A stretch of DNA of 64,000 bases, taken from assembly GCF_023746595.1 (NCBI RefSeq), contig NZ_CP080572.1:682001-746000 (forward strand), written 5' to 3'. The DNA is from Thermococcus argininiproducens (GTDB taxonomy: Archaea > Methanobacteriota_B > Thermococci > Thermococcales > Thermococcaceae). The translations under genes were made by a program, and so were the position numbers. Position 1 is the stretch's first letter, and each line of letters opens with the position of its first letter. Below are positions 8,317 to 41,620 of the stretch, piece after piece. The notes under the pieces were generated by a model. That model ran no database searches. It was given only the letters and a program-made list of their open reading frames with translations, and was not told the DNA's origin.

Positions 8317-9697
8317 AGGAATATACAGTACTGCATTAACAAAACTGCTACTTGACGAAGGATTTAAAATAAGCCAGCCAAGTCAGAGAATCGTCGAAAG
8401 GTTAAACATTGAAAAAGCTTATGATGAATTTGATGTAGATATTCAGGACAAAAGAGATTCCCATGGTGTAGTTTTAGTTGGTACAAAAGTTGAGGAAGTT
8501 AAAAAAGTTCTTGAAGAGAAATTTTTGGATGTTTTTTTCAGAAAGATGCCATATCAGCTGTATGGCATATATAAAGGAATGGTGGTTAAGAGAGACGACA
8601 GATATGTCTATGTTGATATAGGAAGTGCCATTGGGACATTGCTAATTGAAGAATTCCCAGATGCTATGGAAGGAGACGAAGTGCTAGTTCAGGTAAAGAA
8701 AAACAACTTGCTTCCACATTTAAGCGTCCTTCTTACTATCCCAGGAGATTATGCAGTTCTTATTCCAAAGCCAATTGGTACACAGAGACACGTTAAAATT
8801 TCTAGGAAAATTAGGGAGCAGAGTGAGCGGGAGAGACTTAGAATACTTGGATTAAGTGTGGATTTAGGGGAATGGGGAGTTCTATGGAGGACAGCTGCAG
8901 CATACAAAGATTGGAATTTATTACGAGATGAGCTTATTAAACTTTCAAAAATCGCTGAAAAGCTTAAAGACGCAGATAAATACTCAGCTCCAGCAAAAAT
9001 TGTAGATGGAAGGGATATATACGAAGTAGAATTTGGAGGAGCGGCTAAGGCAAAGCTTGACGATATTAGAAACACCGTGGTTCCCACAATAGAGGGCCAC
9101 CATAAATTCAAGGCCTACGACCCCGAGTTTGGGTTTGCAGTTGAGATAGGAGAAGGAATTCTAGCTAAAATGCCATCTCAACGAAAAAAAGTTAGTGAAG
9201 GCTTTTTAGAGACGTTAGTTAATAATAAAGGTCCAAAGTCTGGATGGCTTTTTAGATTTGAACATGTAAAGCCAGATGGCCAAATAATTAAGATTGGGCC
9301 AGGAGAAATTTTAGAGGTCTCATTAAATCCACTCAAACTTAAGGTTAAGAGGTATCTAAAGCCAGGTAAGTTTTATGATGGGCTGGATGTACCAATAGAA
9401 CACGGAGATTATGCAATAACAGAGATAGAGGATGGTAAATGGTGGTTCAAACACAGCTACTATGACAAAGAAGGGAATCTGAAAGGAGAATACTACAACA
9501 TTTGTACTCCAGTTGAGATCTATCCAGACAAAGCCCGTTATGTTGATCTAGAAGTTGATATTGTCAAGTGGCCCGATGGAAAGAAGGAGATAATTGATAA
9601 AGAGGAACTAAAGATGCACTACGAAGATGGAGTGATAAGCGAAAAGTTATACAAGGCTATATTGAGGCTTACTCAAGAATTGTTTGAGAAGATTTAG
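8282..9697 (+). CDS. fau-1: FAU-1, RNase E/G-like RNA-binding protein
   Basis: 471-residue homologue of Pyrococcus FAU-1. The N-terminal half carries a split S1-like domain ([28 protein letters not shown]), with an RNase E/G-type region (residues about 150-330), and the C-terminal part (about 340-460) is a DUF402 domain ([24 protein letters not shown]... [25 protein letters not shown]). FAU-1 proteins bind AU-rich RNA and have been linked to 5S rRNA processing. ATG 8282 follows AGGTGGTGA inside the upstream gene. Its 3' end overlaps the convergent radB by 29 nt. Confidence 0.92.
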
Positions 9698-23384: not shown

Positions 23385-23466
23385 CTGACCTCCTCCCCGC
23401 TTTTCAAGATGGGGAGGTTTGAGGGGTTTCATTCAGACCCACCCTAAAGAGCGAGACTTTCAAAAG
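23385..23466. mobile_element. 82-bp relic of the same element family that splits the deacetylase gene
   Basis: Starts CTGACCTCCTCCCCGC and ends AGAGCGAGACTTTCAAAAG, matching both ends of the 374-bp element at 39683-40056. The end hairpin CCTCCCC/GGGGAGG is intact. Almost all internal sequence is missing, so this is a deleted, immobile derivative. It sits just upstream of the DtxR-type gene promoter. Confidence 0.65.
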
Positions 23467-23489
23467 AAAAATGTAAAACCAAAAAGCAC

Positions 23490-38466: not shown

Positions 38467-39036
38467 TTGGTTGACATGAGCAATGTGGAGCTTAGAATAG
38501 AGAATATCGTCGCTTCAGTGGATCTTTTTGCTTCACTAGACCTTGAGAAAGTTATAGAGATATGTCCCCATTCAAAGTATAATCCGGAGGAATTCCCAGG
38601 GATAATATGCCGTTTTGATGAGCCAAAGGTTGCTCTTCTGGTATTTAGTTCTGGAAAACTTGTTGTAACTGGGGCAAAAAGCGTTGATGATATCCAAGCA
38701 GCGGTTTCCAAACTCGTTGAAATGCTTTCAAAAATCGGGACTAAATTCAGCAGGGCTCCTGAAATAGATATTCAAAATATGGTGTTTAGCGGCGATCTTA
38801 AGATGGAGTTTAATCTTGATGCTGTTGCTCTTGTGTTGCCCAACTGTGAATATGAGCCCGAACAGTTCCCGGGCGTCATCTATCGTGTTAAAGATCCTAA
38901 AGCAGTTATACTACTCTTTAGCTCTGGAAAGATCGTTTGTAGTGGTGCAAAAAGTGAACATGATGCATGGGAGGCCGTTAGAAAGCTTCTTCACGAGCTT
39001 GATAAATATGGGCTTATTGAAGAAGAGGAATTCTAA
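38467..39036 (+). CDS. tbp: TATA-box binding protein
   Basis: 189 residues with the two TBP repeats: [21 protein letters not shown] and VQNMV-like [20 protein letters not shown] each open a half-saddle, with [30 protein letters not shown] and [30 protein letters not shown] closing them. The intercalating Phe residues are present. The start is TTG 38467, since GGAGGTG lies 8 nt ahead and the protein then begins with VDMSN as in P. furiosus. The acidic tail EEEEF is typical. It recruits TFB and RNA polymerase. Confidence 0.97.
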
Positions 39037-39066
39037 TCTTTTTTCCACTTTTCTAAGGGAGGGAAC

Positions 39067-40442
39067 ATGAGAATTTTTTATTCCGAGGTCTTTAAGGATC
39101 ATAAACCCGAGGGCTATCATCCTGAAAATCCAAAAAGGCTTGAACTTGTAATTGAAGGACTTAAAGAACATGCTCTCTGGATTAATGTTGAGCAACCTCC
39201 TATGGCAGGGATGAATGATATTTTAAAAGTTCACTCAAATGAATACGTTAAAAAGATACAGGGCCTTTCTGAGAGGGGATTCTCTTTTGTAGACCCGGAT
39301 ACATACGTTTCTCCGCACACATGGGAAGCAGCCCTCACAGCTTTTGGAGCATCTATGGAAGTGGCAAAGCTCGCACTCAAAAAGAAGGACGTCTATTTGG
39401 CTTTGGTTAGGCCTCCAGGACATCATGCAGGGAAAAAGGGAAGAGCCCTTGGTGCACCTACCCTTGGTTTTTGCATATTTAATAATGCTGCAGGAGCGGC
39501 ATTAACGCTAAAAGAAAAAGTTGGGAAGGTTGTTATAATTGATTTTGACGTTCATCACGGCAATGGTACTCAGGATATATTCTGGGACGATGGAGATATT
39601 ATTCATATAGATCTTCATGAAGGGGGAATCTATCCAGGGAGTGGCAATATATATGAAATTGGTGGAAAGGGTGCAGAAGGAACTGACCTCCTCCCCGCCC
39701 TGAAGGGTGAGGATTAACCCCTCGCCATGAGCGGTTCGGTTTGCGGGCCCATCACTTACTCGGGTTGCCCCTTTCAGTTCAGCCCGCGGGCCGGGTCTTC
39801 GGCCCGTTACCCCTACCGCAAAGCGGCTCGGGGTTATCACTTCAAGTTTCAACCGCCCCAACGACAGTTCTGAAAGGACGCCTAACGGCGTCTTCCCTCC
39901 GATGATGGAGGGACACGATGAAACTCCTCATGGAGTTGTTCTTAAGTGGCCTCTTCAGGACTTGGTTACGTTGACAAGTTTAAAAAAGTTTCGGTGGTTT
40001 AAAGGTTCACTCGGACAGTTCACCACATCCCGTCCCAAAGGCGAGGCTTTCAAAAGGTAAGATAAATCTCCCAATGCCGCACTATTCAAAAGATGATGAT
40101 TACATCTTCGTTTGGCAGGAAATAGTCCTTCCTATTTTAGAGAATATCAAGCCAAAGATTCTCGTAGTCTCAGCGGGCTTTGATGCCTTTAAAGGGGATG
40201 GTTTAGCTACGATAGAGCTGAGTGAGAGATTTTATCATTTTGCTGGGGCTTCGCTTTCAAGGTTTAGTCTAGCCGTTATTCTTGAAGGAGGATACAGTGT
40301 GGGCTTAAGAAAGGGATTCCCTGCTTTTATTGGGGGTTATCTCGAAGGGAATCCTGAACTTGAGAATATTTCCCCAAAATATGGAACAATTAAAGTTGTT
40401 GGAGAGGTTAGGGAGATACAGGGTGAATGGTGGGGTATTTAA
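39067..40442 (+). pseudogene. Histone-deacetylase-family amidohydrolase split by a mobile element
   Basis: The 5' part (39067-39682) has the zinc-enzyme motifs PPGHHAG (H119, H120) and DFDVHHGNGTQD (D161, H163). The 3' part (40057-40442) has SAGFDAF, holding the third zinc ligand, and LEGGYS with the catalytic Tyr. An insertion at 39683-40056 separates them and brings a stop after 11 foreign codons. Joining 39682 to 40057 gives a single open frame of 333 residues, reading GAEG-SK-INLPMPHYSKDDDY, the expected family length. Such proteins deacetylate acetylpolyamines or proteins. As it stands neither half can be active. ATG follows GGAGGG. Confidence 0.85.
39683..40056 (-). mobile_element. 374-bp IS200/IS605-type element without transposase (MITE)
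   Basis: GC-rich block inside the deacetylase gene. Ends: CTGACCTCCTCCCCGCCC at the 39683 side, CTTTCAAAAG at the 40056 side; the same ends occur at 23385-23466. Read on the minus strand it starts right after TTAC and makes no target duplication, both as in IS200/IS605 elements that use TTAC. The 39683 end, the right end in that reading, has stable hairpins (CCTCCCCGCCCT region, GGCCGGGTC/GGCCC near 39790) like the structured right end that gives TnpB guide RNAs. No tnpA or tnpB sequence remains. Confidence 0.75.
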
Positions 40443-40723
40443 CTCAGTGATGTGGAGCGTTTCTCTTGATGGTGTGTTTTAGAATGGACAAATTAACCAG
40501 TTGACTACAAATTGATTGAACTTTAGTGCATTATAAGTTTATGCATAACCTATAGGGTGGTAATATTCCCGTTTTTTCTAAATACTCACTAAGAATTACT
40601 TGTGTGTTTTTGTAAATACAATAAATATTAACTAAAATATCAATAATAAGCACTTTCTATTTTCTACAAAGATAAATGATAATCTTTAAATATCTATTGG
40701 TTGTTGGAGTATTGGGTGCATTG

Positions 40724-41620
40724 ATGTCAGCTATTAGAATCAAAAATCTAATGAAAAGTTATGGAGATTTTTTAGCGTTGAAGGGGATAAACTTAGAAAT
40801 TAAAGAAAGTGAAATATTTGCCCTTCTTGGGCCAAATGGCGCTGGTAAAACAACGCTCATAAGAATTTTGGCAGAGGGTCTGAAGTTTGACAGTGGGGAT
40901 ATTGAAGTATTTGGAAAGAAGTTAAGTAAGAAAACAGCGCGTTTAATAGGTTATGTTCCTCAGGAAAGTATTTCTTATGATCTCCTGACTGTTGAGGAAA
41001 ACCTTGCTTTCTATGCAGATCTCTACGATGCGCCTAAAGAAAGGATCAAAGAGCTCATTAAACGTTTTGATCTGCCAGCTAAGAAAAAAGCTAGGGAATT
41101 GAGCGGAGGATTTAAGAGGCGTTTAAATTTGGCTATCTCTCTGTTATATGAGCCCAAAATCTTGATTTTGGATGAGCCTTCAACAGGTTTAGATGTTCCC
41201 TCAAGGAGACAGCTCTGGGAGATTATAAAAGGCTTTAAACGTGAAGGGAAAACAATACTCCTTGCCACACATTATATGGAGGAGGCCGAGGCGTTAGCTG
41301 ATAGGATAGCGATAATGAATGAAGGAAGAGTTGTTGCTGTCGGTACAGCGGATGAGCTGAAAGCCTTAATAGGAGAGGAAAGCATTATTCAAGTAGAGGG
41401 GATTCTAAAAGGAGTCGAAGGAATTGGAGAGATATTCCCAAGGTTTATTGAGAAAAGCGGGACTCTCAGGATTCATGTGAAGAACTCGAGGGAAGCTTTA
41501 CCGAAGATTGTTGAGCTTTTAATATCTGCCGGAAGCGAGATAAAGGCCATTAAGGTGGAGGAGCCCACTCTGGAAGATGTCTTTTTAAAACTAACAGGGA
41601 GAGCTTTGGATGAAGTTTAG
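40724..41620 (+). CDS. ABC transporter ATP-binding protein (ABC-2 exporter type)
   Basis: 298 residues. Walker A GPNGAGKT is at 36-43, the Q-loop VPQES near 86, signature LSGGFKRR near 127, Walker B LILDEPSTGLD and the H-loop ATHY follow. The extra C-terminal domain (from about 215) is typical of drug or antibiotic exporters (DrrA/NodI type). The ATG at 40724 fits GGGTG 6 nt before and a TATA box (ATCTTTAAATATC, about 40683-40695). It overlaps the permease gene by 11 nt. Confidence 0.93.
   Translation: MSAIRIKNLMKSYGDFLALKGINLEIKESEIFALLGPNGAGKTTLIRILAEGLKFDSGDIEVFGKKLSKKTARLIGYVPQESISYDLLTVEENLAFYADLYDAPKERIKELIKRFDLPAKKKARELSGGFKRRLNLAISLLYEPKILILDEPSTGLDVPSRRQLWEIIKGFKREGKTILLATHYMEEAEALADRIAIMNEGRVVAVGTADELKALIGEESIIQVEGILKGVEGIGEIFPRFIEKSGTLRIHVKNSREALPKIVELLISAGSEIKAIKVEEPTLEDVFLKLTGRALDEV

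What the first reader, a model, noticed from the sequence alone, without database searches (positions are those of the whole stretch)
39683..40056. Transposase-less element keeping a structured right end: possible TnpB guide-RNA remnant
In IS200/IS605 elements the right end encodes the TnpB guide RNA, with the guide taken from the flank. Here the end at 39683 is GC-rich and hairpin-prone, and the adjacent flank is deacetylase sequence, while TTAC sits at the other end as a TAM would. If a TnpB acts in trans, this RNA would target the empty site, so any allele that lost the element could be cut and refilled.
Basis: inference. Interest (0 to 1): 0.6.

Follow-up and report, generated by a model that had tools for sequence, protein, structure and literature searches.

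The report
Guide-RNA-only jumping gene in archaeon
A 374-base piece of mobile DNA with no protein gene has split a deacetylase gene of a heat-loving archaeon; it carries a promoter-like site and a folded RNA whose targeting end matches the uncut gene, so it probably borrows another element's RNA-guided scissors to keep its place.

Summary
Observation confirmed to the base. Window 39683-40056 is a 374-bp insertion in a histone-deacetylase-like gene. Four same-genus genomes carry the empty site, joined exactly at 39682|40057 with no target duplication. On the minus strand it reads TTAC | element | deacetylase flank. A covariance model built only from right ends of tnpB-carrying elements finds 39683-39838 with 93 bits, E 2.9e-28, so the right end is a TnpB guide RNA (omegaRNA) scaffold, related to Rfam HgcC and sot0042. 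The first 20 flank bases (the guide) match the TTAC-flanked empty allele at 19 of 20 positions in two relatives. Eight tnpB elements with the same right end lie in the same genome; relatives hold tnpA+tnpB elements with both ends.

'Remnant' is too weak. Upstream of the omegaRNA all 11 copies in this genome carry a promoter-like box and a ~150-nt structured RNA domain. The domain has strong covariation, occurs in 46 of 94 family genomes and was absent from the tnpA/tnpB elements examined. It looks like an old lineage of guide-only transposons. Nearest precedents: 'ghost' omegaRNA loci of Fanzor, MITE/PATE elements, HgcC RNAs. Transcription here, TnpB binding and cutting are untested.

The parts
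39683..40056 (-). whole non-autonomous IS200/IS605-type element, 374 bp, inserted in the deacetylase gene
   Evidence: exact empty sites in 4 same-genus genomes
40057..40060 (-). TTAC, target/TAM tetranucleotide directly 5' of the left end
   Evidence: present in the empty alleles of G079, G082, G083, G084
40029..40046 (-). left-end imperfect palindrome (CCTCGCC..GGGACGGG), preceded by GAAAG
   Evidence: shared with left ends of tnpB and tnpA+tnpB elements
39978..39992 (-). promoter-like BRE/TATA box GAAACTTTTTTAAAC
   Evidence: conserved in 11 own-genome copies and, with variants, in 32 of 33 listed copies; function inferred
39839..39977 (-). conserved 5' RNA domain of stacked hairpins, specific to tnpB-less copies in the loci examined
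   Evidence: model R2 matches 39824-39992 with 142.8 bits (the window copy was in the training set); covariation; no other Rfam family
39683..39838 (-). omegaRNA scaffold (HgcC/sot0042-like), ending GGAGGAGGTCAG
   Evidence: model R1 from tnpB-linked right ends, 93.4 bits, E 2.9e-28; Rfam HgcC 32.4 bits and sot0042 30.9 bits, both below gathering
39693..39712 (-). right-end hairpin CCTCACCCTTCAGGGCGGGG
   Evidence: sequence; conserved in most copies and tnpB elements
39663..39682 (-). predicted 20-nt guide, taken from the deacetylase flank (length assumed)
   Evidence: 19 of 20 identical to the TTAC-flanked empty allele in G082 and G083, 16 in G079, 14 in G084
39067..39682 (+). 5' part of the interrupted deacetylase gene (the ORF runs on to 39717)
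   Evidence: PF00850 profile 1-198
40057..40442 (+). 3' part of the interrupted deacetylase gene
   Evidence: PF00850 profile 204-284

Best explanation
The element is a non-autonomous IS200/IS605-type transposon that encodes only a guide RNA. SHOWN by sequence: exact insertion 3' of TTAC; ends shared with tnpB and tnpA+tnpB elements; an omegaRNA scaffold whose pairing is maintained in tnpB-less copies; a promoter-like box and a covarying 5' RNA domain; a guide position that reads the interrupted gene. INFERRED: RNA polymerase starts about 23 nt downstream of the box (near 39955-39960, minus strand) and reads through 5' domain, scaffold and into the flank. One of the eight cognate TnpB proteins in the genome binds the RNA in trans and probably trims its 5' side. 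The complex recognises TTAC plus the guide-matched deacetylase sequence, which exist side by side only where the element is missing. It cuts that empty allele, and repair from a chromosome that still has the element restores it. TnpA of an autonomous relative moved the element originally; this genome's single TnpA belongs to an element in which these ends were not found.
For: Empty sites and TTAC. Model R1, trained on 21 tnpB-linked right ends and no stand-alone copy, hits 39683-39838 at E 2.9e-28 and all 11 stand-alone copies of this genome. Alignment to tnpB elements shows the scaffold starts inside the tnpB 3' coding end. 8 of 19 above-cut-off tnpB genes in the genome carry the same right end and keep RuvC D/alternative-E/D residues. 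9 of 29 relatives' tnpA loci show both ends; G076 has five equal-scoring tnpA copies, each with an omegaRNA of the same score nearby. 38-sequence alignment (37 from stand-alone copies, 1 tnpB-linked): 63 cells changed on both sides with pairing kept, against 19.5 in shuffles. 5' domain: 78 such cells against 27.5, 93% paired against 42-55% for slid partners. 30 of 30 examined 5'-domain loci have an R1 match immediately 3'. Transcription precedent: T. kodakarensis expresses HgcC RNAs, two of them not associated with transposase genes (PMC4247193, passages). Function precedent: ghost omegaRNAs guide SpuFz1 (PMC10432273, passages).
Against: No RNA or cleavage data for this element. Window scores for HgcC and sot0042 are below Rfam's gathering cut-offs. 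The only TnpA of this genome lies in an element without these ends. TTAC reads intact in only 5 of 10 own copies with a recognisable left end (alignment), so several copies are old or altered. In G007, G010, G063 and G088 the strict R1 search finds no more omegaRNAs than 5' domains, so stand-alone copies may exist without a cognate tnpB there. The eight TnpBs lack the canonical RuvC-II glutamate; that the alternative one works is inferred.
Confidence: 0.72

Rival explanations
1. Decaying fossil: an internal-deletion derivative whose right end keeps omegaRNA sequence only because it is recent; the RNA is not used.
For: No tnpA or tnpB inside; many own copies have altered left ends or TTAC; solo fused ends occur; no cognate tnpA found in this genome.
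Against: Pairing is kept through double changes in both domains across copies from many genomes of 5 genera, and the promoter-like box is conserved; a recent deletion derivative would not have a shared 5' domain in 168 copies (sum of the table).
Confidence: 0.15
2. Structure is conserved for single-strand DNA transposition only (hairpins recognised by TnpA), not for a guide RNA.
For: Left- and right-end hairpins are shared with tnpA+tnpB elements, and IS200/IS605 TnpA reads such hairpins (recalled).
Against: Internal helices far from the ends covary and keep many G-U pairs, e.g. GU in 30 and 25 of 32 rows at two 5'-domain pairs, which favours RNA; the scaffold homologous to the known omegaRNA families is internal too.
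Confidence: 0.08
3. Co-opted regulator: the RNA guides a TnpB without cutting, or acts as a free non-coding RNA (the older HgcC view), to regulate genes.
For: HgcC RNAs were described as non-coding RNAs with no assigned mechanism in the passages read; the cognate TnpBs have a rearranged RuvC-II site.
Against: Guides are just the flanks and differ in every copy, which suits self-site targeting rather than a shared regulatory target. An RII-r5 clade TnpB was active in vitro (PMC10278001, passage).
Confidence: 0.05

Closest known systems
Ghost Spu-1 elements of Fanzor in Spizellomyces punctatus (PMC10432273, passages read)
   Same: nuclease-less loci between the same kind of ends, omegaRNA in the right end, proposed to use the nuclease in trans
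   Different: eukaryotic, Fanzor not TnpB; inverted repeats and CA motif; about 550 bp; the ghost omegaRNA tested is 75 nt, and no separate promoter plus covarying 5' domain appears in the passages read
HgcC RNA, Rfam RF00062 (T. kodakarensis HgcC1-5, PMC4247193, passages read)
   Same: same scaffold end GGAGGAGGUCAG followed by variable flank; a tnpA+tnpB element end of G076 passes the HgcC gathering score
   Different: window copy scores 32.4 against a cut-off of 50; the Rfam model covers only 130 nt and lacks the 5' domain
sotRNA sot0042, Rfam RF02656 = haloarchaeal omegaRNA (PMC12558985, abstract and passages read)
   Same: whole-model match on the minus strand; overlaps tnpB in its home elements
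   Different: below gathering (30.9 of 88); haloarchaeal and tnpB-linked
IS200/IS605 elements and their MITE/PATE derivatives (PATE known here from the search listing of PMC3119063 and PMC7290912)
   Same: TTAC target, end hairpins, no target duplication, same ends as autonomous elements
   Different: those papers predate omegaRNA; whether their PATEs hold one was not checked
TnpB donor-site cutting that promotes IS retention (Meers 2023, recalled; paper not held)
   Same: proposed mechanism
   Different: there studied with nuclease-encoding elements as far as recalled; here the nuclease would act in trans

Membership tests
IS200/IS605 element (non-autonomous) | insertion 3' of a short fixed target, no target duplication | tested here: met
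   TTAC kept, exact empty sites; second copy L048 has an empty allele with GCTTAC in G079
IS200/IS605 element (non-autonomous) | subterminal hairpins at both ends, shared with tnpA-carrying elements | tested here: met
   9 of 29 relatives' tnpA loci show both ends
IS200/IS605 element (non-autonomous) | own tnpA (autonomy) | tested here: not met
   no such ORF inside; hence filed as non-autonomous only
TnpB omegaRNA | scaffold homologous to tnpB-linked omegaRNAs, ending at the right end | tested here: met
   R1 93.4 bits, ends exactly at 39683
TnpB omegaRNA | guide from the flank plus TAM at the other end of the element | tested here: met
   TTAC and 19/20 target identity in G082, G083
TnpB omegaRNA | transcribed and bound by TnpB | not testable with these tools
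   needs RNA-seq or RNP purification
TnpB omegaRNA | directs DNA cleavage at TAM plus guide | not testable with these tools
   needs an interference assay
HgcC (RF00062) | score at or above Rfam gathering (50 bits) | tested here: not met
   32.4 bits; related, not filed as a member
sot0042 (RF02656) | score at or above Rfam gathering (88 bits) | tested here: not met
   30.9 bits
Fanzor ghost locus | omegaRNA of a Fanzor between its inverted repeats | tested here: not met
   cognate proteins here are TnpB with DLG in RuvC-I, not the DPG of Fanzors; works-like only

The most novel reading that the evidence does not exclude
A long-lived lineage of transposons made only of a promoter, a previously uncatalogued structured RNA domain and an omegaRNA has specialised in using TnpB in trans. 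Each genome holds a scattered set of up to 18 stand-alone guides, each guarding its own insertion site, and the 5' domain is a functional module (TnpB recruitment, processing or heat stability) that replaced the tnpB gene.
Probability: 0.45. Interest if true: 0.78.

Novelty: new variant of a known kind. Interest (0 to 1): 0.62.

Why it matters
It would show that RNA-guided retention can be parasitised in archaea: elements with no protein at all could protect their place by lending guides to a neighbour's nuclease. It would give a mechanism to HgcC RNAs not associated with transposase genes, and it offers a natural, movable guide-RNA chassis with a conserved extra domain whose role can be tested directly.

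Tried and rejected
Rejected: chance GC-rich hairpin (R1, E 2.9e-28); non-tnpB parent element; coding 5' domain (1-3 base indels between copies and covarying hairpins; no codon test was run). No other Rfam family up to E 1 in 39000-41000.

Led nowhere: an exact-pattern scan of genome contigs gave 2 matches in Clostridia-like records and no relative; the tool warns that records near the window may be left out. The PDB, structure prediction, fold search, viral collection, phages, plasmids and E. coli tools were not used. A self-target search (TTAC + 13 guide bases, up to 3 mismatches) gave 7 places: the locus itself (TCAG in place of TTAC), one with 2 mismatches, five with 3; the reversed control gave 8. 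So no perfect target, and no excess.

Not tested: whether HgcC4/HgcC5 of T. kodakarensis belong to this lineage; which of the eight TnpBs is cognate.

Literature: searches of the held open-access library did not show a description of tnpB-less omegaRNA elements in archaea; most subscription papers are not held, so this is weak evidence of absence.

Full report
Observation. The finding's coordinates are exact. Four same-genus genomes (G079, G082, G083, G084) carry an uninterrupted deacetylase gene whose alignment breaks precisely at window 39682|40057, and the joined flanks align to them. The 374-bp element contains no tnpA or tnpB ORF. On the minus strand it begins CTTTTGAAAG directly after TTAC and ends GGAGGAGGTCAG directly before deacetylase sequence. 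The right end is GC-rich (64.7% against 41.0%) and folds far better than shuffles (z -5.2). The two gene halves match PF00850.

What the right end is. At permissive thresholds two Rfam families match the minus strand, HgcC (32.4 bits, gathering 50) and sot0042 (30.9 bits, gathering 88). sotRNAs are regarded as omegaRNAs of IS200/IS605 tnpB (PMC12558985, passages). For an independent test I built model R1 from 21 right ends of elements that carry tnpB (13 from tnpA loci of relatives, 8 from this genome), with no stand-alone copy in it. R1 finds 39683-39838 (-) with 93.4 bits, E 2.9e-28; the next match in the 64-kb window has 23.6 bits. In this genome R1 has 29 matches at E 0.01 or better: 8 tnpB-linked, 11 stand-alone copies and 10 shorter or degenerate ones. 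In the alignment the scaffold begins within the tnpB 3' coding end. One tnpA+tnpB element end (L099, from G076) passes HgcC's gathering score, while the other 19 loci in that scan gave no HgcC match.

Parents. The genome has 19 tnpB-like genes above the PF07282 cut-off. Eight carry the GGAGGTCAG right end. All eight keep GIDLG, NADLVGAFNI and a glutamate placed as ExxxxxxCxxC, the 'alternative E' arrangement described for Fanzors and some TnpBs (PMC10711439, passages). Only one Y1 TnpA exists, in an element where these ends were not found. Among 94 family genomes 25 have TnpA. Of 29 fetched tnpA loci of relatives, 9 show both ends in order. In 13 of the 15 where a left end was recognised TTAC lies within 18 nt upstream, one of these (L109) at an odd distance. 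G076 has five equal-scoring tnpA copies, each with an equal-scoring omegaRNA nearby, so this family has been mobile.

Guide and target. With the usual geometry the guide is 39682 downward on the minus strand. The empty alleles read TTAC followed by a sequence identical at 19 of 20 positions in G082 and G083, 16 in G079, 14 in G084. The six more distant alleles listed in that call lack TTAC there. The own genome has no perfect TTAC+guide site. A second copy, L048, also has an empty site in G079 with TTAC. Across own copies, TTAC reads intact in 5 of 10 with a recognisable left end. Guides of different copies all differ.

The unexpected part. Eleven copies in this genome align over nearly their whole length, including about 150 nt between left end and scaffold; one, L005, has lost its left end. 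This stretch has no match in the tnpB elements compared. It begins with GAAACTTTTTTAAAC, resembling the BRE-TATA arrangement that precedes T. kodakarensis start sites by about 23 bp (PMC4247193, passages). Model R2 of this domain matches 46 of 94 family genomes, 168 copies in all by summing the table, up to 18 per genome. It finds 0 of 21 genomes of the phylum outside the family (46 of 115, all in family f1). In 47 loci around tnpA or tnpB genes it finds only two matches, both separate stand-alone copies beside tnpB elements. In 30 of 30 fetched loci an omegaRNA match follows immediately. Pair counts on 33 aligned copies (32 distinct): 93.2% of cells paired (shuffles 87.0), 78 cells changed on both sides with pairing kept (shuffles 27.5), slid partners 42-55% paired. 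A structure predicted afresh on the same alignment gave three hairpins, 20 pairs, 9 with double changes; two of these hairpins are those of the model, the third is an alternative pairing near the 5' side. Caution: A4 was aligned to the model and rows are related. The omegaRNA part of stand-alone copies keeps its pairs too: 63 double-change cells against 19.5 in shuffles (one of the 38 rows, in L004, is a tnpB-linked training sequence). Its lower terminal helix (helix 6) is poorer, 79% paired.

How it probably works. See best explanation: shown are anatomy, kinship, empty sites and conserved structure; transcription, trans use of TnpB, cutting and refilling are inferred. TnpB trims the 5' side of its own mRNA to make omegaRNA (PMC10278001, passages). 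A tnpB-less element therefore needs its own promoter, which fits the conserved box. Stand-alone omegaRNA loci are known for Fanzor ('ghost' elements), and four ghost scaffolds supported editing (PMC10432273, passages). T. kodakarensis HgcC4 and HgcC5 are transcribed away from transposase genes (PMC4247193, passages); they may be copies of this lineage, which I did not test.

Against. No RNA or nuclease data; no matching TnpA in this genome; decayed TTAC in half of the own copies; in G007, G010, G063 and G088 the R1 count does not exceed the R2 count, so a cognate tnpB may be missing there, though both searches used strict filters. The retention idea rests on work recalled, not read (one search failed).

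Verdict. The element is better described as a member of a guide-only transposon lineage with an uncatalogued 5' RNA domain: a new variant of known kinds.

Noticed in passing
window 23385-23472 (-), TTAC at 23473-23476: An 88-bp miniature of the same family: left end, right-end hairpin and GGAGGAGGTCAG, no full scaffold, in an intergenic gap (R1 23.6 bits; sequence).
   Followed up: partly
window 9227-9370 (+): Weak R1 match, 8.8 bits, E 0.12; probably chance or a very old end.
   Followed up: no
L058, L060, L065, L064 (about position 1500): Very short solo elements in which the left-end hairpin runs straight into the GGAGGAGGTCAG right end, as if left and right hairpins had recombined, like solo LTRs.
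   Followed up: partly
L048 1490-1515 against window 40057-40065: Upstream of both left ends the letters TTATCTTA are shared although the empty sites differ; L048's empty allele in G079 reads GCTTAC|TAGATAG. L048 may carry 5 extra left-end bases; unexplained.
   Followed up: partly
L083, L084, L085 (own genome): A second TnpB-like group has DEAYTS near the zinc-finger position but lacks the CxxC cysteines and the canonical EDL motif.
   Followed up: no
G007, G010, G063, G088: Genomes with as many or more 5'-domain copies as omegaRNA matches, so possibly stand-alone copies without a cognate tnpB.
   Followed up: no
L076 2830-2929: Rfam SscA RNA (71.4 bits) lies about 700 bases beyond a tnpB element right end.
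   Followed up: no
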